Below are positions 19,908 through 62,802 of a DNA stretch of 64,000 nt, piece after piece. Under the pieces are notes generated by a model, which was not told where the DNA came from, ran no database searches, and was given only the letters and a program-made list of their open reading frames with translations. The translations under genes were made by a program, and so were the position numbers. Source of the DNA: Corallium rubrum (taxonomy: Eukaryota > Cnidaria > Anthozoa > Scleralcyonacea > Coralliidae); NCBI GenBank assembly GCA_964035015.1, contig OZ036007.1:14636282-14700281 (forward strand). The letters run 5' to 3'. Position 1 is the stretch's first letter. The number at the start of each line of letters is the position of its first letter.

Positions 19908-20062
19908 ATATTACCAGGGTTAAGTCACGTTGGCCTGAAAAACAGAGAAAAATCTTCTCGACGTTTCGAACGAAGGCCCTTCGTCAGGAGAAATTAGTAA
20001 ACAACTCACATGTGGTCACGCGTATTTATAGCAGAGCTACAATGGGAATCACGTGAACACAT
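19908..20062 (-). repeat. PLE-A terminal repeat, 3' copy
   Basis: 155 bp, nearly identical to 28335-28489. It contains the hammerhead motif at 19960-19987. It ends at the centre of the palindromic Polinton-terminus element. Confidence 0.8.
19960..19987 (-). ncRNA. Hammerhead motif in PLE-A repeat (3' copy)
   Basis: On the minus strand: CUGACGA, one unpaired A, a 4-bp stem GGGC/GUUC with loop CUUC, then GAAACGUC. This is the short-stem hammerhead layout reported for Penelope-like elements. Confidence 0.6.
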
Positions 20063-28334: not shown

Positions 28335-28489
28335 ATATTACCAGGGTTAAGTCACGTTGGCCTGAAAAACAGAGAAAAATCTTCTCGACGTTTCGAGCGA
28401 AGGCCCTTCGTCAGGAGAAATTAGTAAACAACTCACATGTGGTCACGCGTATTTATAGCAGAGCTACAATGGGAATCACGTGAACACAT
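28335..28489 (-). repeat. PLE-A terminal repeat, 5' copy
   Basis: 155 bp, matching 19908-20062. It is truncated or ends exactly at the Polinton boundary. Confidence 0.8.
28387..28414 (-). ncRNA. Hammerhead motif in PLE-A repeat (5' copy)
   Basis: Same layout as at 19960-19987, but stem II is better paired (GGGC/GCUC with loop CUUC). CUGACGA and GAAACGUC are both intact. Confidence 0.6.
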
Positions 28490-29160
28490 AGTATAGGACT
28501 TGGGGGTGCCGGCGCATTTTTTTTTTTTTTGCCAAAAACAGCCTCAAAATGTTGGAATTTAACGGGAAAGGATGTTTGAAAGGGGTAACTCTTTTTTTCC
28601 ACTTTTCAGAGTATAAGCAGACGGGAAAATGGGTTTTGAGGGATACGGAAAATTTTGTCGGTGTCAAAACACTCATATTGTTGGATTTAATATGAAAAAC
28701 ACAGCCGGTCTTTTGCAGGTGGTGATACGAAAATGTGGTTAGAGCAGGCGACTTATTCAGTCACATTATGTGCAGGTGGTAAGGGAGACGGCCAATCATC
28801 TTTTAACCCATAAATTAGAGTTTTGGTTTTAGTTTTGGTTTTGGTTTTGGTTCTGGTTTTTGACATGGAGTTTAGTTGGTTTCCGGTTTATGTTCAACTA
28901 CTTTTGTTTTATGTTGGTACACATGTTTTCCCACGGTTATACCACCAGATAACAGTCCGAGACATGGTATATACGCGTGATCATGGCCACAACTTTACCA
29001 ACGTCATTCTTTAACAGTTTATCTTTTTGTAATTCATTGTCTAGCGCCTCAGAGCTTTCTACAGCGTCCAAACCACCGAGAACATTGGAGAATCTACTGA
29101 TCAGCATATCAGTCAGGAATTCGTTAGCTCTTTCCATTCTTCTGGCCTCGTATTCAGCGT
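28490..29160 (+). repeat. Polinton left terminal inverted repeat
   Basis: 671 bp, matching the reverse complement of 44621-45296. It includes a short GGTTTT-rich run near 28818-28860 and, on the minus strand, a truncated duplicate (28937-29160) of the 3' part of the gene at 44323-44910. Confidence 0.9.
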
Positions 29161-29515
29161 CTTTTGCCGGCTACAATCGGCTTTTCTCAGCTGTAATCGG
29201 CTTTTACCGGCTACAATCGGCTTTTGCCGGCTACAATCGGTTTCTGCTGACTACAATCGGCTTTTGTCAGCTGTAATCGGTTTCCGATAGCACAATCGGT
29301 TTCCGATAGCACAATCGGTTTCCGATGACTACAATCGGTTTCCGATGACTACAATCGGTTTCTGTTGACTACAATCGGCTTTTGTCAGCTGTAATCGGCT
29401 TTTGCCGGCTACAATCGGCTTTTTGTCAGCTACAATCGGTTTCTGTTGGCTACAATCGGCTTTTGTCAGCTACACTCGGTTTCTGTTGGCTACAATCAGC
29501 TTCTGGGCTGTCTTG
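29161..29515. repeat. 20-bp minisatellite (ctacaatcggcttttgccgg)
   Basis: About 17 variant units of 'ctacaatcggcttttgccgg' lie directly inside the left TIR. Units alternate between 'ggcttttg' and 'ggtttc' forms. Confidence 0.85.
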
Positions 29516-29543
29516 TTTACTGTAGACTAATTGTCGGTTCTGA

Positions 29544-32500
29544 TTAAATATTCTTATGTCCATACGCGTAGGAACTAATCCCGTCTTCCAGCAAGTATCT
29601 TTTATCATCAAAGCATGAGAGTGATATTTTATTAGTTTCATAACTACCCAGCTTATGTTTTACGCTTCGGATTGCTTTCATTTTCTGAAACACTTGTTTT
29701 TTACCAGATAGTGTGTCTTTGTAGTTCTCATGTCTAATTTGTTTCTTCGTAACACTCTTTTTGATTCCCTTCGCGGTTTTGCCACCTGTTCCGTTGTCTT
29801 TTAAATACGAATACATTTTACTTCTGAGACCAACGAACTCAACTATAGGAACGCCAGCCGCTTCGTCCTTCATCTTCCTAATAACCTTTTTGTTCGACTT
29901 GTTGTGATACGGCGAGTTTTCTGGATAATCTGAGTTGTCAAAAATATTTTTATCAGCCCAGAAGTCTTTGTAAACGTCTTCCGCCTCAATCTCATATGTC
30001 AGGCTGTCCGTATCTGTAAACAACAACTTAGCATTATTTTTATATTTCTTTAACACATAGTTGTAATGGAAATCATACATTAAGGTTTTCGATAGATCCA
30101 AAATACACGAAGGCGTTCCTGGCGGCGGTTCTCTTCACCGTGTTGAAGTCGATATACTGCTTCAGCCAAGCCAACTGATTGAACAACAAAACCCAGTGAA
30201 CTTTCTTCACCCTCATCCCAAGTCTGACGTACAGCTGTAGGTTTCTGTAGTGGACGACATACCTTTCCTTCCCCATCAAATTAGTTACCAGCTTACTGAC
30301 ACCACCAACGCTAACGCCGAACTTTTCCTTAATCTTAAAACAATACTCCGACAGCATATCTTCCCGTATTTCCATTTTTTCGGGGGTTAATGGGTAGTCG
30401 TTGTGTAGATCGTGGAGTTCAGAGGGATATTCAAGATCGACCTCAAGTATCATTCCAGTTCGACCATCTTCAGGGAGTTTCCCCAGGTCCAGGTTTTTCA
30501 ATTCAGCTTCACTCACCCATTTAAATCCACCAGTTGGGAGGCACTGACTCATGGCCCAACCATACAGATTGTTGGCGTCCAGATACATTATATACTTCAC
30601 AGCCTCGTCCTCACTATACCCTCTCATATATGGGTTGTTGGCTTTTCCATATCTGTTAGCTATGTAACTGACACCACCCCTCATTCCTTTCTCAATGAAC
30701 TGGAACATGTCGACGTCAGTCATTAGCTCCAACGTAATCCCAGTCATTTTCAGCATAGCGTCCCAGGCCAGTCCAGGTGAGGTGAAGTAGTGGCAGGGGT
30801 CCAGCTTGTAGTACTGAACACAAGTCTTTCTAAAGTTCTCAAAGACGTCAGCTAACAGCAGAACATTCGATTTCAGATACACGTCATGATAATCCCCCAT
30901 CGTTCTCATCTCAAACTCTCTCAAAACCCCCAAAGCATGGGAATACTGTTTATCGGTTATCGGTTCGTCATTAAGAATGCTGTAGAACTCATCCTTCGGT
31001 GGTAACCCAGTTTCCTCAAACCGATTGAAGCTATCCATGTAGTCATAAGGATAAACACCTTTTGTCCTCATAAGATACGATCGATCACCGAATTCCTCAG
31101 CTGTGTACCTGAACGACCCAGGCGGTAAGTTCCCAACCAGCCTGTCCAATGAGCTACTCATGAACTGAAGACTGTCCAGAAATACAAGGTTTTTACCTAA
31201 CATGAAGGCCATGTACTTTTTCATATTATTCGGTATGACATTAATCTTCTGCCCGAACTTCCCAATCTCACCCATGATGAGATGACTATCATAACCCCTC
31301 AGGTTGTGTAAGATGACTGGTATCTTATCAGTTAATCTATAATTTCTGTTACAAAGCTGATGGGCCGATCCTCGATACTTTCCCGTCACATGACAATGGT
31401 CCCGGACCCTAACATCCCTCTCCCCATACTCCAGACCACAGATGTGGCACTTTATAGCGTCTCTAAAGTCCGCTATATCAGAATCAGTCAGAACCATACC
31501 CTGATTGAAGTGCTCTTTCCGAACACCCTTACAGTACTCCACTTCTTCCAACATCTTTCCGATAAATTTGTTGACAGCACCAGGACCTCTATACACCTGA
31601 ACAGGTTTGCTGTATCTGTCGTCATAACAACAGACAACCTTATACCCATAACCACAATCAGCATGTCTCTGATACTTCTCCATGTACGGTCTCTTATCTT
31701 TCTCCTCTTGGTCTGACCCCAACACCTTCGGTTTGTCGACCTTTTCCGTGATCGCCTCGAAGTCAGCGTACACAACAACACGGAACATTTAACTGTTTGT
31801 GGAAATTACCATACTTCAACGCGTTCTTACCGGGGTCAGGCATCCTAACAGCCTGTTTACCGTTTACACTGATACACCCAGTCTGATGTTTCCCCAAAAC
31901 CTCCGTTGAGGTGAAACATTGTAGGCAGTAAACACAGTAGTGTTTTCTCTCCCTGTGTTTTGTTCTGTTGTACATAAACCTATCAAAGTCCTTGATGAGG
32001 ACGTAATGTTTGTTGCCCCCGTTGGTTATAATCAGTAGGTTCATGAGGTCGGTGAACCTTTCCTCTGAGACGTAAACCGGAAAGGTTAACCCGTCTTCGT
32101 AACCAAAGACGTTGATACGTATCTCATTCTGTTTCTCCACCCGGTTGTACTGTTTCTGACTCACTGGAAAGTTGATTCCACTATAGTTCAGGTCGTCAAT
32201 GTGGTACTTTGTGACCGGTACTTTGTGACCCTTTGTGGGTCTTTTGGGACGGGAAACTTATGAGCCAGATGACACCACATAAAACACCTATCATCATTAT
32301 TCTTAACGTTGATCAACCCCTTCCGACTATTCTTCAGCTCCTTAGGGAGGTCGATGTAAGACGAGCCTTCCAGTGGACTGTACACAGTCAGATTAACGTA
32401 GTGACCGTCTACTGAGTTTACTGTCCAGCCAGATCCCTCGCTTATCCACCGGGCTATCCTAACCACCACCTCCTCATTCGCGACGTCAACGTCCTGACCG

Positions 32501-32844
32501 ATCTCATTACCGTTGATTATAGTCTTGATGTGGCTGTTGAAGTGAGCCGTCTTATAAGTTCTCCCGCCAGACACCTCCTTCTCAAGCGTTACAACCAGCG
32601 TTTCGGCGAACTTAAACCCCCTCATCTGAACCAGTTCCCGACGTAGTAACCGTACCACGTCATTCCTAAGAGCATTTACTTGTTCCAATGGGTACTGACT
32701 TACCACAGCACAACTGAACGACTTGGTTTTACCCCTCAGGGCTCTGTCTAACTGATTTATGTCGTAACCAATTAGTCTCTCGTAGAGACGGGGGTTTTCG
32801 TCGGAATAGTCGTCGTCCTGGTGGATCATGACATCTGGATCCAT
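29544..32844 (-). pseudogene. Protein-primed DNA polymerase B (Polinton), broken
   Basis: Minus-strand gene in four pieces. The N-terminal region (32844-32188) has the conserved 'GLINVKNNDDRCFMWC' block. A 14-bp tandem duplication at 32203-32230 shifts the frame into 32164-31763, which has zinc-knuckle-like 'CVYCLQCF'. A second shift near 31775 leads to the main part (31788-30073). That part has exonuclease motifs YADFEA, HNLRGYDSH and YHDVYLKSNVLLLAD, and polymerase motif A 'YLDANNLYGWAM'. The last piece (30101-29544) has motif C TDTDS and the 'GGKTAKGIKK' region. Between the last two pieces the motif B region is deleted (roughly 70-80 residues by family comparison). The enzyme would replicate the element from a terminal protein. 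This copy cannot. Confidence 0.92.
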
Positions 32845-33463
32845 CGTTATAACAGGGGTGATCACATTCCGTTAGGTGTCGTCCCGACCACTCGGTGTAG
32901 AACTTGTCCAAAGTCTGCCCCCAACCAAGTTCTTTATACACAATCCCAAACAGATTGTTATCGAATAGGCCCTTCGTTTTCCCCTTTTTAAGATCCTTTA
33001 GGTTACCCAGTAACTTAATCCCTCTTCTTGAGCACAATCTGATGATGTAATAATTGTATCTGGATAAGTTACGACCTTTTATCAGACCCTTACTGTCCAT
33101 CACTTGGAGAACTTTGGAAAAGTCGGCTAAAACAATATCAACGGCTGTATCCCTGACAACTCTGGTGAGTCTCTTTCTCATCCAATGATTTCTCGAATGC
33201 TCACTTCTATGACCAACAGCCGCCCGATATCTCCCGACAACATATCCATATTCTGTGTCACCACATCCTGGACAGGAGAACATCTCGGTGTTCACCTGTA
33301 CACGAAATCCGGAACAATCCCCACACCACAGTTTCGTACTACATCTGGGTGGATCCCAGGTCGGGGGTGTTAACTCAATCCCCATCTGCTTACAGACCCA
33401 TTCAACGCTTGAAGACGGTAAATCCTTCAGCCCTTTCGGTAAATCGGACCAGGAAACAGACAT
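32729..33463 (-). CDS. Zinc-ribbon protein, possibly VLTF3-like
   Basis: A 244-codon frame upstream of the polymerase. Residues about 40-70 form a four-cysteine zinc ribbon (CGDC ... CPGCG). A helical region follows with 'SRYNYYIIRLCSRRGIKLL' and 'FDNNLFGIVYKELGWG'. The arrangement recalls the VLTF3-type late transcription factors of large DNA viruses and their Polinton relatives, but I rate this only as possible. The last 115 bp overlap the polymerase start in another frame, and the true end may be earlier. The start ATG is preceded by TTAGTTATA, as in other genes of the element. Confidence 0.5.
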   Translation of the reverse strand: MSVSWSDLPKGLKDLPSSSVEWVCKQMGIELTPPTWDPPRCSTKLWCGDCSGFRVQVNTEMFSCPGCGDTEYGYVVGRYRAAVGHRSEHSRNHWMRKRLTRVVRDTAVDIVLADFSKVLQVMDSKGLIKGRNLSRYNYYIIRLCSRRGIKLLGNLKDLKKGKTKGLFDNNLFGIVYKELGWGQTLDKFYTEWSGRHLTECDHPCYNDGSRCHDPPGRRLFRRKPPSLRETNWLRHKSVRQSPEG

Positions 33464-33472
33464 TATAACTAA
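33464..33472 (-). promoter_or_regulatory. Start-proximal motif TTAGTTATA
   Basis: It directly abuts the ATG of the zinc-ribbon gene and belongs to the shared TTAGT(G)TATA set. Confidence 0.5.
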
Positions 33473-33508
33473 ACCCTAACAGATCCCCTTAACCCCTACA
33501 AAACAAAC

Positions 33509-33913
33509 CTAGACATCAGATACCCCAACCAGACCAACAGACCCGATAAACAGGGTCTGATACTCTTTCATCTCACCCGATGGTTTGTAATAGTGAGACA
33601 ACTCAGGCTTTGGCTGGGACAACCCAACGGCCTCAACCTGCCCTAACCTATCCTTCAGCAGATCCAGAGCGTGGTTCGTTGTGTTGATGTCAGCGTTGGC
33701 GTCAGACAGTTCCTGTCTCAACCTCTGTATCCTATCCTTTCTATCCACCTCACTCTCATACCATTTCTCCTTCGCTTTAGCCAGCTGCTCAAGGGCGTGG
33801 TTGTGTCTCTTAATCTCAGCCTCATATCCGGTGTGATTAAACTTTGAAAACAGGAATCCAGCGCCCGCGAAGGCCAGGGCGTTAAACAGTCCACCAGCAA
33901 CTACACTAGCCAT
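33509..33913 (-). CDS. Polinton small membrane/coiled-coil protein
   Basis: 134 residues. The N-terminus (residues 3-24, 'SVVAGGLFNALAFAGAGFLF') is a hydrophobic, probably membrane-inserting segment. Residues about 30-100 are a charged heptad-like helix rich in E, K, R and Q, likely a coiled coil. Small proteins of this plan recur next to polymerase in cnidarian Polintons, but their function is unknown to me. The frame is intact, so a membrane or virion role is possible. The start is supported by the adjacent TATA-rich motif. Confidence 0.65.
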   Translation of the reverse strand: MASVVAGGLFNALAFAGAGFLFSKFNHTGYEAEIKRHNHALEQLAKAKEKWYESEVDRKDRIQRLRQELSDANADINTTNHALDLLKDRLGQVEAVGLSQPKPELSHYYKPSGEMKEYQTLFIGSVGLVGVSDV

Positions 33914-33926
33914 ATATATATAACTA
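33914..33926 (-). promoter_or_regulatory. Start-proximal motif TAGTTATATATAT
   Basis: It abuts the ATG of the gene at 33509-33913. Confidence 0.45.
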
Positions 33927-33946
33927 GAGATAATACATCCTTTCCG

Positions 33947-34342
33947 TTATAAGTATTTTGTGATAATAGAATGGATAATAGACCTATGCCAAAATGGAAT
34001 CCTGAGTAGCTCATGACCGTTGTCCCTGGCATACTCGTCTTTCATCCGATCGTGTTCCTTCTGTACCCTAAAGCGTCTCTCTGCCTCTTCCTGGGTCAAC
34101 TTACCAGACCAAGTGGAAGGGTGAAAATGTTGTTCACCATCATACTCAATCAGTATGAAAACGCCATCACTAAGAGGTATCGCGAAGTCATACCTCAAAA
34201 TGCCACCACCCAACCCCACTAACCCCTTAAAAGTCTTCTCCCTAACCGCCTCAACTCCATTAGCGCGTAAAGCGTTCTGTACATCTCTCTCTCCCCCAGA
34301 CATAGGGGGCAGCCAACGTGTCCCGACCTCCATAATAACCAT
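33947..34342 (-). CDS. PD-(D/E)XK/Vsr-like nuclease
   Basis: 131 residues, intact. The core 'LRYDFAIPLSDGVFILIEYD', continued by GEQH, has the D...(E/D)xx pattern of restriction-endonuclease-like folds: an aspartate after a strand (RYDF), then IEYDGEQH. A helix and 'HELLRIPFWHRS' close the fold, as in Vsr or DUF559-type nucleases. Such enzymes cut or repair DNA. In a Polinton it may process replication intermediates or act on host DNA, which is inference. A second possible start is the internal methionine at residue 4. It lies in the minus-strand cluster with 21-33 bp spacings. Confidence 0.6.
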   Translation of the reverse strand: MVIMEVGTRWLPPMSGGERDVQNALRANGVEAVREKTFKGLVGLGGGILRYDFAIPLSDGVFILIEYDGEQHFHPSTWSGKLTQEEAERRFRVQKEHDRMKDEYARDNGHELLRIPFWHRSIIHSIITKYL

Positions 34343-34363
34343 CGGGTATGGAACTCCCTTAGG

Positions 34364-34603
34364 CTACTTAGGTTTTGAAAAAGGGTCAACCGGTAGGTGC
34401 CCTTTTGACTGAGCATACTTAATCCCAACTGTACTAATCCCAACGGCTAGAGCTAGCTTGACGGCACCCTTTACAGACTCAGGGGTACCCAAAGGTTCCC
34501 TTAACACCTTCTTCGAAACCATAGAAATCACCACAGCTAAGCTTGTAATCAGGAGAGCGTCGTAGAGCTCGTTCAGCAGTTCTTTTCGGTCGGTGGTTGA
34601 CAT
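34364..34603 (-). CDS. Two-TM Polinton membrane protein
   Basis: The likely start is the ATG at 34601-34603 (MSTTDRK), because TTAGTATA lies directly before it. An upstream ATG at 34627 is the alternative. About 79 residues with two hydrophobic segments ('ALLITSLAVVISMV' and 'VKLALAVGISTVGIKYA') and a proline-rich end. Similar two-TM proteins recur in cnidarian Polintons. No function is known to me. Confidence 0.6.
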   Translation of the reverse strand: MSTTDRKELLNELYDALLITSLAVVISMVSKKVLREPLGTPESVKGAVKLALAVGISTVGIKYAQSKGHLPVDPFSKPK

Positions 34604-34611
34604 TATACTAA
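34604..34611 (-). promoter_or_regulatory. Start-proximal motif TTAGTATA
   Basis: It abuts the ATG at 34603 and argues for that start over the upstream one. Confidence 0.5.
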
Positions 34612-34619
34612 CACATATT

Positions 34620-35008
34620 TCATTCATCGAAGGTGTCTAAAACCGGGGAAGTCCGGACGGGGTTCTGTGGCTCGGATTTCACCACAGTTCCTTCCATTAC
34701 CTTCTCCTCCTCAACGGTTTTCAGCCTCCGAACCTCCCTTCTCTCCTGTCTCATAGTGTAATAAAGTGACGCCCCACCGATAATCAATCCAACGGTTCCA
34801 ATTATGTAGCCATAATAGGCTGACCGACCCCCACCGACCCCGAAGTCAACCGCCAACCGCTCCCGGGCTTTCCTCTCCTTGGCTGCCTTCGATATCTGAG
34901 CCAGTCGTTTACCAGCAGCCACCCGTTTTGGATCCTTAACTCTCTCCGTCTTGACCACCGATGTTATTTTAGGACTTCCAGGGTTTTCTCAGATGTTTCG
35001 TCAGCCAT
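34620..35008 (-). pseudogene. Single-TM basic protein, one-base frameshift
   Basis: The frame from about 34958 encodes a lysine/arginine-rich helix ('KDPKRVAAGKRLAQISKAAK') followed by one transmembrane segment ('YYGYIIGTVGLIIGGASLYY') and a charged tail. The natural start is probably the ATG at 35006-35008, preceded by TTAGTGTATAG. It is separated from the frame by one extra base in an A-run at 34984-34987. The plan (basic N-terminal region, TM anchor) is shared by cnidarian Polinton proteins of unknown role. A DNA- or capsid-tethering function is speculation. Confidence 0.55.
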
Positions 35009-35019
35009 CTATACACTAA
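35009..35019 (-). promoter_or_regulatory. Start-proximal motif TTAGTGTATAG
   Basis: It abuts the ATG at 35008 and is nearly identical to the motif at 39083-39092. Confidence 0.55.
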
Positions 35020-35061
35020 CCTATATCCCATCTGTAGGGAATCTGTGAGGTTGTCTGTCAG

Positions 35062-35304
35062 TTAATCTGTGGGGTCGTCTGTAGGAGTCTGTGAGGAATC
35101 CGCGAGGTCACCGGGAGGAATCTCTGAGGCTGTTTGTAGGGAGTCTGTGAGGTCATCTGTAGGAATCTCTGAGACTGTCTTTAGGGAATCTGTCAACTGA
35201 TTTGTAGGGATCTCTGGGGAGTCTACGACTGTCGGCCAATAAACAACAGATTCAGTTACGTAGTACTCTCCCCTAAGGTTTCTTCTAAAACAATGTCTCA
35301 TCAC
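35062..35304 (-). CDS. Short protein with acidic tandem repeats
   Basis: 80 residues. After 'MMRHCFRRNLRGEYYVTESV' the frame is built of about three 15-residue repeats such as 'DSLKTVSEIPTDDLT'. They reflect a 45-bp DNA tandem repeat at about 35050-35200. No family recognised. It may be a low-complexity tail of a lost gene. Confidence 0.35.
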   Translation of the reverse strand: MMRHCFRRNLRGEYYVTESVVYWPTVVDSPEIPTNQLTDSLKTVSEIPTDDLTDSLQTASEIPPGDLADSSQTPTDDPTD

Positions 35305-35415
35305 CCCGATAGCTCTTCTGAGGGCGTGGAAGATAATCAGTATGGGTCGTCTGAGTCTCTTGGAATCTTCATATAAAATACAGGAGGTCTAAGTCTATAC
35401 CATGAGCCTGGAGTA
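35305..35415. promoter_or_regulatory. Divergent intergenic region with TATAAAA
   Basis: The region separates a minus-strand gene from the plus-strand kinase gene. 'catataaaatac' lies about 45 bp before the kinase ATG and is a TATA-box candidate. An upstream ATG at 35401 opens only a five-codon frame ending near the kinase start. Confidence 0.35.
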
Positions 35416-36159
35416 ATGAACAACCCAAAGTTCGGTGCTCGACTGATCGCCCTCGACGGAAACATCGGTGTGGGAAAGACAACGTTCGTGAAACCATTCG
35501 CTAGGAGAAATGGTTACCATCTCATCGAAGAGCCAGTTGAAGACAATCCATACCTCGAAAGGTTTTACGCTGACCCCGGGAGATGGACGTATGAGATGGA
35601 GACCTGGTTCCTCGGTGAGAGAATCGACGCCTACCTGAGAGCTCTGGAGTTAATCAACGAGGGGGAGAATGTGATTATAGAGCGAACACATCACAGCTGT
35701 CTGGTTTTCACTAAGAACTGTTGGCGTAATGGGTGGATAACCAGCAAACAGTTCTGTGAGTATTCCCAGGTCTTCCACTCACTAAACAATCTACTCCCAA
35801 CCCCTGACGCTCTACTATTGCTAGAAGCCTCAGTTGACACTTGTCACGGCCAAATGCTCAGGAGAGGTCGGGAATGTGAAGCCGGTGTGACTAAGGACTA
35901 TCTCAGGTGTATACAAAGGTATATGGGGGAGATGACTGAGGACATAGCCCTTAAGGGAACTAAGGTGATTACCCTCGATTGGGAAGACTTCGGTCCGGAT
36001 GAATCGGAGGTACTCGGTACCCTCAATGGAATCCCTAATGGATTTCACGGTTGGATGGCTCGTGTGGGTGACCGAGACGTCTACATACCAGAGATAGTCA
36101 GAACCGTTACCCAGGCCCGGCAGGCTCAGGTGAGTCGTAAGTCCTGTGATACCGTGTGA
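35416..36159 (+). CDS. Deoxynucleoside kinase (dNK/TK2-dGK family)
   Basis: 247 residues, intact. The P-loop GNIGVGKTT is at residues 15-23 and EEP at 38-40 (substrate-site glutamate region). ERT in 'ERTHHSCLVF' near residue 92 takes the place of the family's DRS/ERS motif. The arginine-rich LID 'LRRGRECEAGVTKDYL' is near residue 150. The enzyme phosphorylates deoxynucleosides to monophosphates and so feeds dNTP pools. It lies inside the Polinton between minus-strand replication genes and the capsid cluster. Its 3' end overlaps the convergent gene at 36107. Viral kinases of this type support DNA synthesis in resting cells. I do not know it as a standard Polinton gene, so it looks like an acquired accessory. 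Substrate specificity cannot be read here. Confidence 0.85.
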   Translation: MNNPKFGARLIALDGNIGVGKTTFVKPFARRNGYHLIEEPVEDNPYLERFYADPGRWTYEMETWFLGERIDAYLRALELINEGENVIIERTHHSCLVFTKNCWRNGWITSKQFCEYSQVFHSLNNLLPTPDALLLLEASVDTCHGQMLRRGRECEAGVTKDYLRCIQRYMGEMTEDIALKGTKVITLDWEDFGPDESEVLGTLNGIPNGFHGWMARVGDRDVYIPEIVRTVTQARQAQVSRKSCDTV

Positions 36160-36619
36160 CCATACTGTCGAAATGTGGACAGACCTCAGTCACAATGTCG
36201 TCGAGTACACGAACGTCGGATAGGAAGATACTTTCGTCATAGGAAGCTCCACGTAGGAAGCTTCTGATTTGTGTCAGAACCTTGTGATAGTTGATATGAG
36301 CGAATTCATAGTTCTCCAGTCTGCCAGGCATTCCCGACTTGGTCATATATCCCTGAATCAGGACACCAGGACCGGCTATGGTTCCGAGGATCAGTGGGTT
36401 AGCTGTAACACCACCGGCTATTCCCCCAATCACAGTCAACCCAATACTGACCGTCTCGAGGATCATCTTCAGTCTCTTCAGTCGAGTGTGTTTCCACTTG
36501 TAACAAGTCGCTAGCTTATGGTAATACGAGTAGAGTCGGGTTAGTTCGTCTACCTCAGCTGGTTGGAGGTTTTTACCAATGTGGTTGAAGCTAATAACGC
36601 TTTTTCTTTTTCTTCTCAT
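36107..36619 (-). CDS. Two-TM protein, SLATT-like layout
   Basis: 170 residues. It has an N-terminal basic helical part ('RLYSYYHKLATCYKWKHTR'), then two adjoining hydrophobic helices ('SIGLTVIGGIAGGVTANPLI' and 'LGTIAGPGVLIQGYM'), then a soluble helix 'INYHKVLTQIRSFLRGASYD' and an acidic/aromatic end. The order of helix, two TM and long helix resembles SLATT-fold effectors, but also other two-TM proteins. Homologues occur in cnidarian Polintons, so it is element-borne. Function unknown: candidates are membrane permeabilisation or a virion membrane component. It overlaps the 3' end of the kinase gene by about 50 bp on the opposite strand. Confidence 0.55.
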   Translation of the reverse strand: MRRKRKSVISFNHIGKNLQPAEVDELTRLYSYYHKLATCYKWKHTRLKRLKMILETVSIGLTVIGGIAGGVTANPLILGTIAGPGVLIQGYMTKSGMPGRLENYEFAHINYHKVLTQIRSFLRGASYDESIFLSDVRVLDDIVTEVCPHFDSMVTRYHRTYDSPEPAGPG

Positions 36620-36624
36620 TCTAA

Positions 36625-37410
36625 TTACAGGACATATTCAACCATGGTCCTGTTACAAATCTTTTCAATCTCAGGATCCCCCAGATGACCCTCTACGACT
36701 TTCATACCGTAAAAGTTGATGTCTGACTAATACTTTTTAAAACTGTTTAGCCCGAAGACATCCATATAAGATGTTCCTATGTGATCGATGTTACTGATAA
36801 AAAATGAATCTTTCAGTATTTCACCATTTATCCTGACGTGTGACACTCTAAGTCCAGATAGCCAGTGGGCAGATATCAGAATCTTCTTCCCAATGAACTT
36901 CGCTGGAATTGTGCACTCGTGAATCCTATGTGGTGACGACCCATCTATAAACAGTTTGTCATTCACCCCAGCTATAAACCCAATGCTTTTGCCGAGACTG
37001 TTGTCATTATTGGAAACAATCATTTCCCAGGTACCCGACGCCGGTCTCACACTGTTTCTCTTTACCACAACGAAAACTGAAACATCGGTGAACATGAGTC
37101 TGGGTATGCTAACGTGGAAGCCCGTTCTTATCGTCGTCTCAGGGTAAAGGAAGTGATGGTCGCCAGCAGTGTTAAGCTGTGGGTTGATACTAGGGGGTTT
37201 CCAAAACATGGTTGAGTTGATCCTGGTCTCACCGTCCCTGTCTTCTATGTAATCAACAAAGGGAGGTAACTTGGAGATCGCGTTTTTACTGGCCCTGGTT
37301 ACGTTTAAATCGAAGATAACTCTGTGGTCATGAGCCTTCATGTGAGCTTTCAGTTTGTCGTTGAGTTGTTTCTTGGTGATTGGTCTGTCGTAACCATAAA
37401 ACAGACTCAT
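36625..37410 (-). pseudogene. Fibre-like protein with LamG/ConA-type domain, in-frame TAG
   Basis: After an N-terminal 'YGYDRPITKKQLNDKLK' and a linker, residues about 100-225 look like a beta-sandwich lectin: 'SVFVVVKRN', 'IGFIAGVNDKLFIDG' and 'VSHVRINGEIL'. A TAG at 36727-36729 interrupts the frame. The same frame continues for 33 codons ('HLGDPEIEKIC...MVEYVL') to TAA at 36625, a typical end for these domains. Such proteins are likely receptor-binding or virion-surface fibres of Polintons, which is inference. The start is supported by CTATAGTAT next to the ATG. Confidence 0.6.
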
Positions 37411-37419
37411 ATACTATAG
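37411..37419 (-). promoter_or_regulatory. Start-proximal motif CTATAGTAT
   Basis: It overlaps the ATG of the fibre gene and is a variant of the shared set. Confidence 0.4.
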
Positions 37420-37458
37420 AACGTATTTACTGAACAGATACCCAGACGTGACTGTTAA

Positions 37459-37530
37459 TTACAGGTCATATTCAACCATAACCTCCTTACAAATCCTCCC
37501 GATCTCGGGTTCCCCCAGACGACCCTCAGA
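37459..37530 (-). pseudogene. C-terminal fragment of a second fibre gene
   Basis: The 24 codons reading 'SEGRLGEPEIGRICKEVMVE' parallel the end of the fibre gene at 36625-36720. They abut the truncated 5' end of the integrase. This marks a deletion junction that removed most of a second fibre gene and the integrase N-terminus. Confidence 0.6.
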
Positions 37531-38199
37531 TACAGATGGACTTGGTTGATATGGGGAAGTACAAGAACCAGAACAAAGGGTATTACTGGATTTTGACAGC
37601 TGTTGAGATTCTGAGTAGGTACGCTTTCGCCATCCCCGTTTACAGGAAGGACACGGGAAACATGACTGAGGCTGTGGCTGAGCTGCTGAAACAGTTCAGA
37701 GACCGATTTGGTGACTACCCCGACCTGGCTCAGTTTGACGACGGAAAGGAGTTTTATAACGTTGGTGTGAAGGACTTACTGAAGAAACGTGGTGTTGAGT
37801 ACTTCAGTACGTTTTCGGACAGGAAAGCAGCAGTCGTCGAACGATTTAACAGAACACTTAAGACTGCTATGTGGAAGTATTTCTACACCAAGGGGACTTA
37901 TAGGTGGATTGATGTCCTGGACGACCTCGTTGAGGGTTATAACAACACAAAACACAGTGTCGTTATGCTGAAGCCCAAGGACGTAAATAAATCAAACGAG
38001 AATCAGGTTTGGAATACGTTGTTCGGTCATCATTTTGGTGATCACCCCTTACCCAAGTTCCGGGTTGGAGACACTGTAAGGGTGTCAAAGTATAAGAGTA
38101 TATTTACGAAGGGTTATGAAGGTAACTTCACTGAGGAAATCTTTAGGATAGTGAAGGTCATCCGTGGTGATCCAAACGTTTACGAGATAGAGGACGCTG
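37531..38199 (+). pseudogene. Polinton integrase, catalytic core without N- and C-termini
   Basis: The retroviral-type DDE core is clear: first aspartate in 'MDLVDMGKYKNQNKGYYWIL', second in 'AQFDDGKEF', glutamate in 'AAVVERFNRTLK'. An SH3-like 'FRVGDTVRVSKYKSIFTKGY' region follows. The zinc-binding N-terminal domain is missing, since the upstream sequence is a fibre-gene fragment. The C-terminal chromodomain lies 0.6 kb away on the opposite strand (38804-39022) because of an inversion. The open frame runs on to 38240 through unrelated sequence. The protein would insert the element into chromosomes. This copy is inactive. Confidence 0.9.
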
Positions 38200-38789
38200 A
38201 GCCCTTACGGATTTCAGCTTTCGACTCAATGTCTGTGTAGTGCTGTACGCTTCCTTTCAGACTCTGTTCAGAGGTTATCGGAAGGGTACCAATCAGATTA
38301 CTCCTCCTCCCATTGTCCAGACTTTTCTCACTCTCAACAGCGTCACACGAGATCCTGACATACCTCAAACCTCTGTTGATGTCCACTTGGTTTGGACTGT
38401 TAGTCCACCCACCACCACCAGCAGTTATCACATCGTTCTCATTAAACCCCAAAAGAAGACCCATCTTCCCAAGTTTCAGCTTTTCCGACGTTTTAACTTT
38501 AGAAGTTCCGTTGTAAACATTCTTTCCGAACTCAACCGTCCCACCAGACCCCCCGGCCAGAATCTTAACGAACCGTTCCCAACGCGTCAAAGTCGAGATA
38601 ACCTTCAGGAGCGGATACCTTCATACTGTCGAACGACACCGAATCGTTCAGACCTGACACCACATTGTTATAGTTCCAGTATACCGTCGCTTTCTTCAGC
38701 ATTATTTGTGGTTTCGGATTTATCACCATGATAGGTTGTTCGAAGTAGACAGTCTTCTCACCGTTTTCAATGAACAATGTTAACCTCAT
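38199..38789 (-). pseudogene. Minor capsid protein, inverted and cut
   Basis: Two overlapping minus-strand frames belong to one gene. 38789-38565 ('MRLTLFIENGEKTVYFEQ' to 'EGYLDFDAL') and 38590-38199 ('LGKMGLLLGFNENDV', 'VDINRGLRYVRISCD' and 'GTLPITSEQSLKGSV') are joined by a one-base shift near 38575. The gene matches the conserved minor capsid (penton-type, jelly-roll) protein of cnidarian Polintons as I know it. Its last ~20 codons are not here but on the plus strand at about 39025-39086. So the segment containing this gene has flipped. Confidence 0.65.
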
Positions 38790-38803
38790 CCTCAGAGTAT
38801 ATA

Positions 38804-39019
38804 TTAACCCAGGTTTTGTACGTCACTTTCAGGTATCCATGAGTTGTGTTTACTGTCATAACCCAACCACTTGACCAACACCATCTTCCTTCCCGCGACT
38901 TTCTTCCTCCTCAATACCTTCTCCACCCTATAAACGTCATCCTTCTTATCCACCGGCGATAGCTCTTCCTCATAAAACTTTCCGATAATCGGTTCACCCA
39001 CCTTTATGGTTCGTGGAAA
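38804..39019 (-). pseudogene. Integrase chromodomain, displaced by inversion
   Basis: The frame reads 'EPIIGKFYEEELSPVDKKDD', then 'VYRVEKVLRRKKVAGRKMVL' and 'VKWLGYDSKHNSWIPESDV'. This is a chromodomain with the aromatic and W-x-P positions conserved. In Polinton integrases it is the C-terminal domain. Here it sits on the opposite strand from the catalytic core. It ends 15 bp upstream of the minor capsid start, as expected if integrase and capsid genes were originally tandem. Confidence 0.85.
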
Positions 39020-39024
39020 CAATG

Positions 39025-39086
39025 ATCAGTCAGTAGGTCGACCGGTTGGGATCGGAGCTGTTCTGCTTGAGTTGTACATAGGTTAG
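39025..39086 (+). pseudogene. Minor capsid C-terminal tail, left behind by the inversion
   Basis: A plus-strand reading 'GRPVGIGAVLLELYIG' followed by TAG at 39084-39086. It resembles the usual capsid-gene end and lacks any upstream start. The stop codon lies inside the TTAGTGTATA motif of the next gene, so the two genes were packed end to end. Confidence 0.6.
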
Positions 39087-39092
39087 TGTATA
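39083..39092 (+). promoter_or_regulatory. Start-proximal motif TTAGTGTATA
   Basis: It directly precedes the ATG at 39093 and is nearly identical to the motif before the gene starting at 35008. Confidence 0.55.
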
Positions 39093-42000
39093 ATGGCTGA
39101 GGGAGAAGTCAACATCGAAATGGGTGAGCGTGGTGAAGGTAGAGAGAGAGAAGATGGTATCGGCGAGGCAAGTTTCATAGATGATAACAATGAGGACTCC
39201 GAATCGGACCACCTCATATTTGAACCTTCTGACCGTGTGACCCGTATTGAGGATGGGGTGCCCGACATTGGTAGTGATGCTGGGTCAATGAGAAGGTCTG
39301 TCACATATGATAAAAAGAAGGCCTTCCGCGAGGCATTAGGGATTGTAAGAAGTAAAGAAGATGGTGATGCATCTAATGAGTTGATAGAATGGACCGAGTT
39401 CAGATTTAACGAAAAATGTGGTCTCGTCAACGGATTGTGGTTTCATGATGTACTGGCCAAAGTGTCTGATGGTGACGGGACTAGGTACAGTGATAACAAA
39501 TTAGAAAAGGTACAAGGGTATGTTCAGGGGCGGATTTAATATACGTCAAACACGTCAAGCGACTAGGGTAAAAAAATCTGAGATGTGAAAATTTAAGGGT
39601 TTCTTCTGATTTTCCAATTTTTAACGTATTTGGCAAGATACGATTTATTCTTTGCTGGAGAATAATTTCATAATTTCTAGAGCCCTCGTCAGACGCCGCG
39701 CAAGTTATTCTGTGGCGACCTGTGGCCGCTATCGGCCCCGTAGCCTGCAAAGCAGGCTTAGCTTAGTACTACAACCGTATAAGAGGTAACTATGGCGGGA
39801 AGTGGTCACGGACCGGCACGTTTATCCACGTCAAAATGGCCGAAATACGTCGGAATCATGAGCGCTGATTGGTCAAAGCCAATGGAATTACGTCGGAAGT
39901 GAATGCAATTACGTCGGAAGTAAATTTTTTTAACGCAGGCTAGATTTTGATTGGCTAGAAACTAAATCTTGGTCGCAATCCGCCGCATGAAGCTGTATCT
40001 TGCAGCATCTTGCATGAAGCTTCCGATCCGAGAGGATAGCACAAGCTTGGATTTTTGAAGACAAATCGCAATAGATTTGTCACAATAACTCATCGTTATT
40101 ACTCTTCAGAGCGCTCTGCACACGTTCTAAGACGTTTGTCGAAGCCATGACATCAAAGCCCGCTTGTAATCTCTGTTCATGCTGCGAAGTTTAGTGTAAA
40201 ATCCTTATACAAGGATGGAAAGAAGACCCAACACACGAAGGCGGACAAGCTAGAGTATAAAGCCATATGTCGCTCTAAGGTAAGCTTATAGGTACAGTAG
40301 TTCGTCAATATGGATTCAATATCGATGTTATTCTGCTGTCATCTTTGTTGATATCCGTTCCATATTAGCATAATCTGCGTTGAGCACATGAACACACTGG
40401 TATAAATCAATGCTATTAAATGCTTCATGTAGTACTATAAACACTACTTAGATCGTGTTTCACTAGATACTCACTAGTATGTGTTTCACTAGATACTCAC
40501 TAGTATGTCATAATCATGATGCAGAGTCAGATTGCCCTTCCACAGTAGTTTACATAATACATTCGTCCTCGGTTCATATTTCAAGCCAGTTAATTGTCTA
40601 ATATATAACATACAGACAGTATTATAAGTAATGACATATAACTTTTAATTAAACATATATATAAGTAATAAGATTTGGGCCTGGGGAAACAGACCAAAAG
40701 CTAAGCAATAAATATGTACATGACATTTCTACAAATTTCCATGCATTATCGTTATACATCAAGTAAAGCATTCCTCTCACATGTGGCTATTATGAAATTT
40801 TAATCTGATAATTACACTGGACAGGAATTGAACTTGGGTTGTTGGTGCCTGAAAACCAGACAGCTCATAGTAACATGGGATAGTAGGGGGATGGGTAGTG
40901 GCATATTAGATGGGGGTTAGAATGATTGGGATGATGTAGAGAATTGAGCTCCTCTATGTCTATGTCCATGTCCATGTCCATGTAATGTCCATTATGGTGA
41001 TTAACAAAAGCTTCTCCTGACTCCTACTAACCAGACATTGTCTGCTTGGGTTGAGGTTTAAAAGGCAAGTATCAGGCATTTGAAAGCCAGACAGCTCTGG
41101 GTCACCTTGCTCTGGGTTATGCAGAATGTTAAATTCAGCTAGACCTTCACTTGTGTGTTGGTCAGGCTGTCCATGTTGGATTCACTGACTGAAACAATGT
41201 AACTGGTGTTTCCTAGGTATGCTGATGAACTTTGACATTGAGCGAAACAGCCAACTTTTTCATATTAGAATGTGACCACATATAGCTCTACTGTTTATTG
41301 GATTTCCCCACCCTTATTCCTGGAAAAACTTAGCCTTACACACTTGCAAACTATCACAAGGTTTCTAAGACAACAAGAAAATTTTAAATGTTTTAAAACA
41401 TGTTTTTAATGGACATTTTATCAATTTGATCCAATTTAAATAAAACGTTTCTAGAAAATGATAAAATGTCCATTAAAAACATGTTCTAAAACATTTAAAA
41501 TTTTGCTCGAATGTGCTGTCAGAATGCAGGAAATGCCATTTCAGAGATCCAAATTTCAAAAATTTTCCAGGGGGGGGGGGGCATGCCCTGGACCCCCTTT
41601 AAATATGGGCCCACAGCAACTTTGACTAAGGTATCAAAATTCCTAGATCCGCCCCTGGTATGTTGACCGTTTCAAAGAACTGTTAGAGGAAGCCAGAACC
41701 GAACATCACAATACGGCTGAGGGAGCGGTTGAGGAAATCAGTGTTAACCCAGTACTTTCTGAGAAAGTGGTGGCTAATATACTCTCACGATCCAGCTCAG
41801 CGATCAACGGTTGGGTTGAAGAAATGGAGGAAGAAGCGCAAGAACAGGTGAGAAAAATATTTATATCTGAACAGGAAGTAAGAGAAATCTCTGGGGTAGT
41901 CAACATACATGGTGAAGATACGGACATAATTGATTATCTTGAAATAGAAGCCGACAACTACAGAACGAAAGCGGATAATGAAGCCGACCCTCTTAAAAAA

Positions 42001-42454
42001 ACAGTTCTACGACGTCATAAAAATGGTGGAGTTAAAGGCAGACAGTATAAGAATCAGGATTAATGAAAGACCTGAACACACAGAAGCCATGTCTATTTTA
42101 AGCGATGAGGTGGAGAATAGTGACCTGAATAGGTTAGAAAAGTTTAAGAAATGGGCTAAGAAAAATATGGTTGGTCTGTCTGCTATAGCCATCACCATAG
42201 CTGGGATCATAACCACAATAGTTGTAGCCGCTAGAAATGCTGTCTCTGGGGGAGCAAAAGCCGTTGGTAGTTTCGCTAAGGCACTCGCTAACCTGGGTAA
42301 GAAGCTGGGACCTCTGTTAGCACCACTGTTCAGCCTAGTAGCACAGGTTCTGACTTGGGGAGCAAAAGGGATAGTATGGTTAGCCAACAATCTGTGGGTT
42401 TTAGCCATAGCTATGACGTGGTTACTGTATGACTACTGGAAAAACAGAAAATAA
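39093..42454 (+). pseudogene. Polinton membrane-associated virion protein, interrupted by hAT-like element
   Basis: Part one, 39093-39524, has an acidic N-terminus, then 'SVTYDKKKAFREALGIVR' and 'WTEFRFNEKCGLVNGLW'. A 2.1-kb element splits the codon series at 39524/41665. Part two (41665-42061) is helical and acidic. One extra A in the run at 41995-42001 shifts the frame into 41978-42454. The end has strongly hydrophobic helices ('LSAIAITIAGIITTIVVAAR', 'FSLVAQVLTWGAKGIVWLA' and 'LWVLAIAMTWLLYDYW'). The family recurs between minor and major capsid genes of cnidarian Polintons. A membrane-interacting internal virion protein is plausible. I know of no experimental function. Confidence 0.65.
39525..41656. 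mobile_element. hAT-like non-autonomous element
   Basis: The ends are CAGGGGCGGAT and ATCCGCCCCT, typical hAT termini. The exact 8-bp flank GGTATGTT occurs at 39517-39524 and 41657-41664. Removing it restores the reading frame of the host gene. The inside has no transposase. It contains an inverted pair around 41390-41510 ('gttttaaaacatgtttttaat' type arms) and unassigned sequence. Confidence 0.85.
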
Positions 42455-42462
42455 AATCTGTT

Positions 42463-42471
42463 ATGTAGTAT
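42463..42471 (+). promoter_or_regulatory. Start-proximal motif ATGTAGTAT before the major capsid gene
   Basis: It overlaps the ATG at 42472 and is a variant of the shared AGTATA-type motif. Confidence 0.4.
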
Positions 42472-43712
42472 ATGACCAACAGAAGTCAGACAGAGCTGTT
42501 ACCTGGATTCAGACGAGCGAAGATGTCGGAAATCAAGGGAAGCAGAACAAGACATACGATCACCATGAATCCCAACAAAGTCAACCCTGGTGAGGACCTT
42601 TACGTCGACATACCAAAGCTAAAACCTGATAGCTGTTTGGTCCCGGGTAGTTTTCATCTACTGTTCGACTTCAAGAACGCTAATACCAAGTCGTGGTTCC
42701 TAAACAATCTCTCCAGGCTTCTGGTTGGGAGGTTGGTTGTCAAGCTAGCCGGCGAAACTGTTTACGACAATACAGGTGAAAGTGTCTTCGGTGTGTACAG
42801 GGATCTCTGGCTACCGAAGAGTGTAAGGGATCAGATGGTTGGATATGGAATTGGTTCAGAAAATCTGAGAAAGTTGATGTCTAAGGACGACAGTGGGGCT
42901 TCCCCTGGGGACGCTGAGAAGGTGGCTGACGCTTTGATGCTCCAATCCATGGGACAAAACTCAAAGTAAAACTGAATAAAATCCTCGAGGACCACGGACT
43001 CTACGCCCTCTTTGAAATGTACAACAACTTCCGCTACATCATTACATTACCAAAGGCCTCTGACATTATGGTGGCCCAGTCAAGTGAATCTGTTGACGGG
43101 TACACACTGGAAAACCTCGAACTGGAGTATGAGACGATTGATAACACCGACATCGCCAGTGAAATAACCTCGCTATACACGGTTGGCCGATCGTTGTCCT
43201 ATGAACACGTGACGCTGATGAAGTCAACTGAATGGGCGGCTGGATCAACCCTGATCAACGAACACATTAACCTTCCACGGAAGTCCATGAAAGGTATCGT
43301 AATGATGTTCACAAATAAAACCCGGACTGATAGTGAGGAATACGTCTACCCAAACATTGAAAGTGTTAAGCTAACAATCGAGGGTGTACCCAACGCCGTC
43401 TTCAGTCAGGGGATCCCAAAAAGTCGGTTCTATGACGAAGCTAAAAGACTGTTTGGTGGAAAGGAAAACACAGATCAGTTTATGACAATCCGGAAGTTCT
43501 ATAAGGACGCCTTCGTCCTGGCGATTGACTTGAGAAGTATTGAGGACCGCGGCAGTGTTGGGACCGGGAAAAGAATCGTTAATACACAGTCTGGGGTCCT
43601 GATTGAGATTACCAAAAAGGTGACTGTGGCTGATGTAGTCTGTCGGATCTTTGTGCTGAGTGATGGCTTGGTGAACATGGTAAACAAACACCTAAAATCA
43701 ATTCAGTATTAA
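42472..43712 (+). pseudogene. Major capsid protein (double jelly-roll), frameshifted
   Basis: Part one (42472-42969) starts 'MTNRSQTELLPGFRRAKMSE' and contains the first jelly-roll strands ('KVNPGEDLYVDIPKL' and 'LLVGRLVVKLAGETVYDNT'). A frame change near 42945-42975 leads into part two, which reads on as 'MYNNFRYIITLPKASDIMV', 'PRKSMKGIVMMFTNKT', 'VKLTIEGVPNAVFSQG' and 'FVLAIDLRS'. The total is about 410 codons, ending in TAA just before the ATPase ATG. It is the hexon-type capsid protein that defines Polintons as virus-like. Apart from the single shift the gene is well preserved, suggesting recent inactivation. Confidence 0.88.
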
Positions 43713-44318
43713 ATGGATCATCCATTCAATATGTTGGTCGTTGGTATGACAGCTTGTGGGAAAACCTGGTATCTTCTGAAGATGTTAGAAGATGAATACT
43801 TCGGGTTCTTCGACTACATCGTTCTGCTCTGTCCAACGTTCAGCTGGAACGAAACCTATAGTACCTGGAAATACACCTCCGAGCCGGACTTCATCGCTGT
43901 GGATTGTAGTCAGGACGACGTTGAAATTGTACTAGAATATATTGTTAGGATATTCAGAGGTTCCAAAACATTGATAGTCCTCGACGACTGTGCTAGTGGA
44001 CAACCCATAAAAAAAACCCAGAACAAGTGAGTTGGTTAAATTAGCCTTCAGGCACTACAATCCGTCACTATCGTAATCACACAACAGCTAACAGCTATCA
44101 CAAAACCTTATAGGGAGAATATTAGTAAGTTGGTAACGTTCTACAATCCCAACAAAACCGATATGAAGGTCATCACTGATGACTACCTAGGTGGTTTAGA
44201 CCGTGATGAGGTTATGGAGGTAACTAAAAAGTTAAAAGAGAACAAATACGTTAGGCTTGAGATTATGTTAAGACATCCGTACGCGTATAAGGTGGTTATC
44301 CCAAAATCTGGTCTATAG
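43713..44318 (+). pseudogene. FtsK/HerA (A32-type) DNA-packaging ATPase, frameshifted
   Basis: It starts directly after the capsid stop (AGTATTAA-ATG). Walker A is GMTACGKT at residues 11-18 and Walker B is LIVLDD followed by CASG near residue 90. The frame is lost around 44010-44130 in an A-rich stretch and the next ~100 bp. It resumes as 'LVTFYNPNKTDMKVITDDYL' to 'RHPYAYKVVIPKSGL' and a stop at 44318. The family pumps DNA into preformed capsids. At least two indels inactivate it. The order of major capsid then ATPase fits the virion module. Confidence 0.88.
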
Positions 44319-44322
44319 TAAG

Positions 44323-44910
44323 ATGGCTGAAAGGAAAACTAAAGCGGTAAAAGCTGGAAAAAAATTCAAGGTATCTGCTGGGGAACCAGTCGAGACATCT
44401 GTTGGGGAACTAGAAACGGAAATACCTACTGAAATCCCCAACCTCGTCGATGAGCTCGTCAATGATCTAAAAAAGACTGAGGAAACCAGCCCAACACCTC
44501 CACCAACCGATGACACCAATAAGAAGAGAAGTGAGCTGATAAAATTATCAGAGGATGGTGAGGTAACTCAGTCAGTCAGCTACATCAAAAAAGCGACGGT
44601 AAAGGTTGTGGATAAGCTATACGCTGAATACGAGGACAGAAGAATGGAAAGAGCTAACGAATTGCTGACTGATATGCTGATCAGTAGATTCTCCAATGTT
44701 CTCGGTGGCTTGGACGCTGTAGAAAGCTCTGAGGCGCTAGACAATGAATTACAAAAAGATAAACTGTTAAAGAGTGACGTTGGTAAAGTTGTGGCCATGA
44801 TCACGCCGTATATACCATGTCTCGGACTGTTATCTGGTGGTGTAACCGTGGGAAAACATGTGTACCAACATAAAACAAAAGTAGTTGAACATAAACCGGA
44901 AACCAACTAA
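44323..44910 (+). CDS. Polinton conserved protein of unknown function
   Basis: 195 residues, intact. The N-terminal ~25 residues are lysine-rich, followed by a proline/acidic linker ('EETSPTPPPTDD'), then a helical domain ('VVDKLYAEYEDRRMERANEL', 'LISRFSNVLGGLDAVES' and 'VGKVVAMITPYIPCLGLLSG'). The C-terminus is amphipathic/hydrophobic and may contact membrane. The family recurs downstream of the ATPase in cnidarian Polintons. From about 44621 onward the gene lies inside the right TIR, so its 3' third is duplicated, with a frameshift, at the left end of the element. The start is preceded by CTATAGTAAG. Confidence 0.7.
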   Translation: MAERKTKAVKAGKKFKVSAGEPVETSVGELETEIPTEIPNLVDELVNDLKKTEETSPTPPPTDDTNKKRSELIKLSEDGEVTQSVSYIKKATVKVVDKLYAEYEDRRMERANELLTDMLISRFSNVLGGLDAVESSEALDNELQKDKLLKSDVGKVVAMITPYIPCLGLLSGGVTVGKHVYQHKTKVVEHKPETN

Positions 44911-45296
44911 ACTCCATGTCAAAAACCAGAACCAAAACCAAAACCAAAACCAAAACCAAAACCAAAACCAAAACCAAAACCAAAACCAAAACTAAAACCA
45001 AAACTCTAACCACCTGCACATAATGTGACTGAATAAGTCGCCTGCTCTAACCACATTTTCGCATCACCACCTGCAAAAGACCGGCTGTGTTTTTCATATT
45101 AAATCCAACAATATGAGTGTTTTGACACCGACAAAATTTTCCGTATCCCTCAAAAGCCATTTTCCCGTCTGCTTATCTGAAAAGTGGAAAAAAAGAGTTA
45201 CCCCTTTCAAACATCCTTTCCCGTTAAATTCCAACATTTTGAGGCTGTTTTTGGCAAAAAAAAATAAAATGCGCCGGCACCCCCAAGTCCTATACT
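44621..45296 (-). repeat. Polinton right terminal inverted repeat
   Basis: 676 bp, the reverse complement of 28490-29160 apart from scattered changes and a longer CCAAAAC run. The inner boundary falls inside the gene at 44323-44910. Confidence 0.9.
44925..45006. repeat. (CCAAAA)n-type repeat in the right TIR
   Basis: About a dozen 'ccaaaa' units with minor variants. The left TIR has only five or six, so the tract length differs between the two ends of one element. Confidence 0.9.
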
Positions 45297-61863: not shown

Positions 61864-62187
61864 TTGGCAGCCAAGGATGAACAGCGACGAGACCCTACAA
61901 TCAGTCAAATCATCAACATCATGGGAAGCAGTCGAACAGCCCGAAGTCTTTGGGCAGAATTGGAAAGATTGGAGCTACAAGATGACATCTTACATCGTCA
62001 ATGGGAAACAGAAGATGGAAAAGCATCTAAACTGCAATTAGTCATCGCTCGTTTGTTTGTACCCACGGTCCTCGAACAGCTGAACAACAGCCGTTCTGGT
62101 GGTCATCTAGGTATAACTAGAACAGTAGCAAGAGCCCGAGACAGATTTTACTGGCATGGTCTATACAGCAATGTGGAATCGTGGTGA
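61864..62187 (+). pseudogene. Gypsy integrase zinc-binding region
   Basis: 'SRSGGHLGITRTVARARDRF' and 'YWHGLYSNVESW' represent the HHCC zinc domain of gypsy integrases. The domain then meets a stop before the paired cysteines (CKDCG near 62195). Confidence 0.75.
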
Positions 62188-62244
62188 AAATCCTGTAAGG
62201 ATTGTGGGACGAGGAATGACTCACAACGGAGAAGGCGCCCACCC

Positions 62245-62748: not shown

Positions 62749-62802
62749 TTTAATGTTTGGCGATGGGAGACAGACAGCTCCTCTGAGACAACAGACAACT
62801 AC

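What the first reader, a model, noticed from the sequence alone, without database searches (positions are those of the whole stretch)
38199..39025. An internal inversion splits integrase and minor capsid genes of the Polinton
The integrase core is on the plus strand and stops at 'YEIEDAEP'. Its chromodomain is on the minus strand at 38804-39019. The minor capsid gene is on the minus strand, but its last codons are on the plus strand just beyond the right edge. One flip of about 0.8 kb explains all four observations. This could be an ordinary rearrangement, an assembly error, or an invertible segment that toggles integrase and capsid production.
Basis: partly seen in the sequence, partly recalled or inferred. 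Interest (0 to 1): 0.85.

Follow-up and report, generated by a model that had tools for sequence, protein, structure and literature searches.

The report
Private inversion in a dead Polinton
One decayed copy of a virus-like transposon carries a real 0.8-kb inversion that cuts two of its genes; the other copies compared lack it, so it looks like ordinary damage rather than a genetic switch.

Summary
The refined inverted segment is 38202-38998, 797 bp. In the window's own 474-Mb genome 39 of 39 other listed copies (91-95% identical) are unflipped. A probe across the left joint matches end to end only here; the other 40 rows stop at the joint. Thirty-seven of 39 copies hold 16 extra bp at the right joint, so DNA was lost. 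No inverted similarity above shuffles flanks the edges. Turning the segment back would not restore function: the integrase lacks its N-terminal ~76 residues, ORF M has a frameshift, polB is in pieces, and a transposon sits in the next gene. Best reading: one break-repair inversion in a dead copy. A toggle is not supported. An assembly error is unlikely (the segment differs by about 5% or more from every listed copy), but no reads were seen. That ORF M is a minor capsid gene rests on gene order; sequence and fold tests did not show it.

The parts
28490..45296 (.). Polinton (Maverick) copy, whole extent between terminal inverted repeats
   Evidence: TIRs, polB, integrase and A32-like ATPase pieces
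28490..29160 (+). left terminal inverted repeat
   Evidence: 20 substitutions in 657 aligned bases (3.0%) and 8 gap events against the right one; flanks ACACAT and ATCCTC, no target site duplication
44621..45296 (-). right terminal inverted repeat
37527..38201 (+). integrase catalytic core, open reading frame
   Evidence: 74-78% identical to the ten best-scoring relatives; rve; N-terminal ~76 residues not found in the window, present upstream in 6 of 7 other copies
38202..38998 (-). inverted segment, 797 bp (edges ambiguous by 1 bp)
   Evidence: relatives and 39 of 39 other listed copies
38804..38998 (-). integrase C-terminal piece with chromodomain
   Evidence: Pfam Chromo 1.2e-11; relatives' match mostly starts here
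38202..38789 (-). ORF M, gene after the integrase (position of the minor capsid gene in Polinton relatives); frame changes near 38590
   Evidence: identity as minor capsid not shown
39000..39086 (+). last codons of ORF M left outside the inversion
   Evidence: right-flank DNA lies next to the M end of the segment in 39 of 39 other listed copies, with 16 extra bp between in 37
37456..37527 (-). repeat (81% to 36622-36693) that ends where the truncated integrase starts: second break
39525..41657 (.). 2,133-bp DNA transposon in the next Polinton gene
   Evidence: 14-bp terminal inverted repeats CAGGGGCGGAT.. and perfect 7-bp target duplication GTATGTT
29544..33463 (-). DNA polymerase B region broken over several reading frames
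   Evidence: long stop-to-stop segments lie in three frames; DNA_pol_B_2 in one piece
43713..44030 (+). packaging ATPase fragment, 105 aa
   Evidence: Pox_A32 E 5e-7

Best explanation
This is one inactive copy of a multi-copy Polinton family in an unnamed 474-Mb genome. Two double-strand breaks about 0.8 kb apart, one in the integrase gene at the start of its C-terminal part and one near the end of the next gene, were repaired by end joining with the middle piece turned round and about 16 bp lost at one joint. It happened once, most likely after insertion, and is part of general decay. Shown: the inversion, its edges, its absence from the other listed copies, the missing bases at the right joint, the further lesions. 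Inferred: breaks and end joining as the mechanism, the single event, and the timing.
For: Of the 39 other listed copies, 39 have both flanks in the opposite orientation to the segment (on the table). The left-joint probe matches end to end only in the window; 40 other rows cover one half each. No inverted similarity above letter shuffles at the window's edges (fraction of shuffles reaching the score 0.93, 0.65, 0.22, 0.29) or in 7 unflipped copies (0.105-0.86). 16 bp extra at the right joint in 37 of 39 copies. Further damage: integrase N-terminus absent from the window but directly upstream in 6 of 7 copies, a frameshift in ORF M that 7 of 7 copies lack, a transposon with perfect TSD in the next gene, polB in pieces, TIRs 3.0% apart.
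Against: Only 40 of 520 and 40 of 789 first-look candidates were scored, so a poorly matching flipped copy could be missed. No reads were seen, so an assembly join and a flip that varies between individuals remain open. The right-joint probe never got an answer. Integrase core and chromodomain piece are still open frames, so decay there is light. One fetched copy of 7 (L019) also lacks a recognisable integrase N-terminus and has another arrangement upstream, so the second break may not be wholly peculiar to this copy.
Confidence: 0.9

Rival explanations
1. An invertible segment that toggles integrase and capsid production.
For: The integrase joint is clean: zero net residues against 83 of 95 relatives.
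Against: No inverted similarity above shuffles at the edges; 39 of 39 other listed copies in one orientation; left joint unique among scored rows; bases missing at the right joint; both genes have other lesions. No serine or tyrosine recombinase domain was listed for the 20 window ORFs scanned with Pfam; not every ORF was scanned.
Confidence: 0.02
2. An assembly or library artefact: the segment was placed the wrong way round.
For: The family is repetitive, and repeats invite errors; no reads were available.
Against: Assemblers tend to flip a piece between inverted repeats (recalled), and none was found at these edges. The segment is at most 95% identical to any listed copy, so it was not borrowed from one of them. 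The contig is 15.4 Mb long. A base loss at one joint fits repair.
Confidence: 0.06
3. A flipped lineage that transposed, so other flipped copies exist in this genome or in relatives.
For: Not all first-look candidates were scored (40 of 789).
Against: A copy matching the probe across the joint should outrank the half matches that filled the list.
Confidence: 0.02

Closest known systems
Polinton/Maverick elements (polintoviruses; Krupovic et al. 2014, PMC4028283, passages seen)
   Same: Length 16.8 kb, terminal inverted repeats, family B polymerase, RVE integrase with chromodomain, packaging ATPase
   Different: This copy is broken: inversion, truncated integrase, frameshifts, a nested transposon, no target duplication; capsid genes not confirmed by sequence
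Polinton contigs in bacterial bins, L001-L008
   Same: Integrase core and chromodomain on one strand; in L002-L008 a gene downstream on the same strand ends in a shared motif and was aligned as the minor-capsid candidate
   Different: Integrase only 34-43% identical to the query alignment's first sequence; their downstream gene shows no significant match to ORF M
Invertible DNA switches of bacteria and phages (recalled, no call)
   Same: A short segment in reversed orientation that splits genes
   Different: No inverted repeats found at the edges, no dedicated recombinase seen, every other listed copy in the same unflipped orientation, DNA lost at a joint

Membership tests
Polinton/Maverick | 15-20 kb, with terminal inverted repeats | tested here: met
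   28490-45296, TIR about 670 bp; size range from PMC4028283 (passage); TIRs as a defining trait recalled
Polinton/Maverick | family B DNA polymerase | tested here: met
   DNA_pol_B_2 E 1.8e-10 in 30073-31788, gene broken
Polinton/Maverick | RVE integrase, here with chromodomain | tested here: met
   split by the inversion; the rve match alone is just under Pfam's cut-off
Polinton/Maverick | packaging ATPase | tested here: met
   Pox_A32 5e-7 in a 105-aa fragment
Polinton/Maverick | cysteine protease | not tested
   named in PMC4028283 (passage); not looked for beyond the ORFs scanned
[quoted passage not shown]
   hhalign probabilities 0.4-1.5%; ORF M models at pLDDT 37
Polinton/Maverick | 5-6 bp target site duplication | tested here: not met
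   ACACAT against ATCCTC; TSD length from PMC8547959 (passage). Later rearrangement can remove it; it does not outweigh the genes
Invertible DNA switch | inverted repeats or recombinase sites at both edges | tested here: not met
   (inverted similarity only; unknown recombinase sites cannot be seen this way)
Invertible DNA switch | both orientations present among copies | tested here: not met
   39 of 39 other listed copies in one orientation
Invertible DNA switch | both orientations present at this locus among individuals | not testable with these tools
   no reads held
Invertible DNA switch | genes intact in at least one orientation | tested here: not met
   integrase lacks its N-terminus, ORF M has a frameshift inside the segment

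The most novel reading that the evidence does not exclude
The family has a rare, sequence-independent process (for example during its own replication or integration) that inverts short internal segments, and this locus is one caught example.
Probability: 0.03. Interest if true: 0.5.

Novelty: new member of a known kind. Interest (0 to 1): 0.12.

Why it matters
It shows how a Polinton copy decays by structural change and gives a caution: strand-switched genes in a repetitive element should be checked against the other copies in the same genome before a switch is proposed. The unflipped copies answer a question that the window alone could not.

Tried and rejected
Relatives in viral contigs: five scans found no confirmed relative. 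Protein searches for ORF M found none. Minor capsid identity by hhalign, PDB sequences (two hits, E 0.003 to a gp41 construct over 27 residues and E 0.36, neither taken as meaningful) and AlphaFold (pLDDT 37.5 and 37.4) gave nothing usable; no fold search was run on such models. Gene X (36727-37410) against the minor-capsid candidates also gave nothing. My first reading, from the window alone, that both joints were exact with no bases lost was wrong for the right joint: other copies hold 16 extra bp there. Literature: 'Polinton' with inversion, integrase and chromodomain gave one paper, on Drosophila virilis transposons (listing and start of abstract only); 'Maverick', 'Polinton', 'invertible', 'integrase' gave none; the listings (10 of 14 shown; 10 of 282 shown) held no title about an invertible Polinton segment. 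Two papers were seen as passages; none was read whole.

Full report
What was claimed.

The element. Terminal inverted repeats at 28490-29160 and 44621-45296 bound 16.8 kb with polymerase B, integrase, chromodomain and A32-like ATPase pieces. The repeats differ by 20 substitutions in 657 aligned bases and 8 gap events, and the bases outside them do not form a target duplication.

The observation. The integrase ORF 37536-38240 found 2591 relatives at E<=0.001, of which 120 are listed. In the first BLAST of the pieces the commonest end of the core match was residue 222 (62 of 120) and the commonest start of the chromodomain match was residue 10 of that piece (64 of the 93 with both pieces). With pieces cut at those points, 120 of 120 relatives matched the core end and 95 of 120 the chromodomain; 95 of 95 are collinear, and 83 of 95 have no residue gained or lost at the joint (the other 12 differ by -4 to +5). 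The last 45 residues of the 25 without a chromodomain match are printed; many end near the joint or run on in another frame. None of the 120 contains a 4-letter word of the window's antisense tails on either side of the joint, so none is flipped there. Loci from bacterial bins that carry Polinton contigs, L001-L008, have both pieces on one strand, 7 of 8 with zero net change; five further loci match the core only. So the mixed orientation is real and not chance; the edges are 38201|38202 and 38998|38999, with one base of ambiguity.

Other copies in the same genome. The window lies in a 474-Mb assembly. The table lists 39 other places that match the segment, at 91-95% identity, from 40 scored of 520 first-look candidates. 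In 39 of 39 both flanks lie on the strand opposite to the segment, that is, unflipped. The left flank abuts the segment with 1 bp overlap in 33 of 39 (the rest between -4 and +4); the right flank is separated by 16 bp in 37 of 39 (8 and 28 in the others). A 120-base probe across the left joint matched end to end only in the window; the 40 other rows stop at the joint within two bases (40 scored of 789 candidates). The right joint could not be probed. The flip is thus private to this copy as far as the scored candidates show, and it went with a loss of about 16 bp.

Edges. Around the joints, inverted similarity is not above letter shuffles in the window nor in 7 unflipped copies. This speaks against recombination between inverted repeats; it fits two breaks and end joining. 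That mechanism is inferred.

State of the copy. The match to other copies starts at 37527 in 5 of 7 fetched copies and at 37532 in one; the seventh, L019, lacks 37527-37997 and has part of gene X upstream. In 6 of 7 the integrase N-terminus lies directly upstream (not in L019), while a search of the window with 55 relatives' N-terminal pieces found no convincing match other than the stretch from 37527 on, with a weak extension to 37488. At that break a 72-bp repeat ends (37456-37527, 81% to 36622-36693). ORF M has a frameshift absent from 7 of 7 copies. A 2,133-bp transposon with a perfect 7-bp duplication interrupts the next gene. The polymerase region lies in pieces over three frames. Turning the segment round would leave both genes broken, so a switch has nothing to switch. 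I did not turn it round in any script.

What ORF M is. In fetched copies it is 239-240 codons stop to stop in 6 of 7 (190 in one) and follows the integrase; the two frames overlap by 16 bases in 5 of 7. In bin loci L002-L008 a gene downstream of the integrase on the same strand ends in a shared motif and was taken as the minor-capsid candidate, which with the published penton gene (PMC4028283, passages) is the basis for the label. Direct tests failed: no relatives, hhalign 1.5% and 1.0%, models of pLDDT 37.

Assembly error. The segment is at most 95% identical to any listed copy, the contig is 15.4 Mb long, and no inverted repeats were found at the edges, so a misplacement is unlikely; only reads can exclude it.

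Verdict. A real but ordinary, private, inactivating inversion in a decayed Polinton copy. Interest is low. The switch reading is kept at 2%.

Noticed in passing
35416-36159 (+): Deoxynucleoside kinase gene (Pfam dNK E 3e-37) inside the Polinton; a literature search for Polinton with deoxynucleoside kinase listed one paper, on algal viruses.
   Followed up: partly
39525-41657: 2.1-kb DNA transposon, no ORF over 100 codons wholly inside it, with CAGGGGCGGAT ends (hAT-like, recalled) and 7-bp target duplication GTATGTT in a Polinton gene.
   Followed up: yes
28335-28489: The 155 bp left of the Polinton are 99% identical to 19908-20062 and end exactly at the terminal repeat; no target duplication is present.
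   Followed up: partly
62071-62760 (+): A second, distant integrase-like stretch, about 22-29% identical to the relatives' integrases.
   Followed up: no
29135-29522: Array of about 20-bp units (CTACAATCGG..) next to the left terminal repeat.
   Followed up: no
L001-L008: Polinton contigs sit in bacterial genome bins (for example an Escarpia endosymbiont, Ignavibacteria, Planktothrix), probably eukaryotic contamination.
   Followed up: partly
36622-37527 (-): Two related 3' gene ends 834 bp apart, as if a tandem gene pair had lost one body together with the integrase N-terminus.
   Followed up: partly
39000-39300: Downstream of the right joint the listed copies differ: some match over about 300 bp, others stop roughly 40 to 160 bp in, as if two groups existed.
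   Followed up: no
G000:C161:77199-77379: One other copy seems to carry a short duplication at the same integrase joint: two left-flank matches with a 35-bp piece of the segment between them, all unflipped.
   Followed up: no
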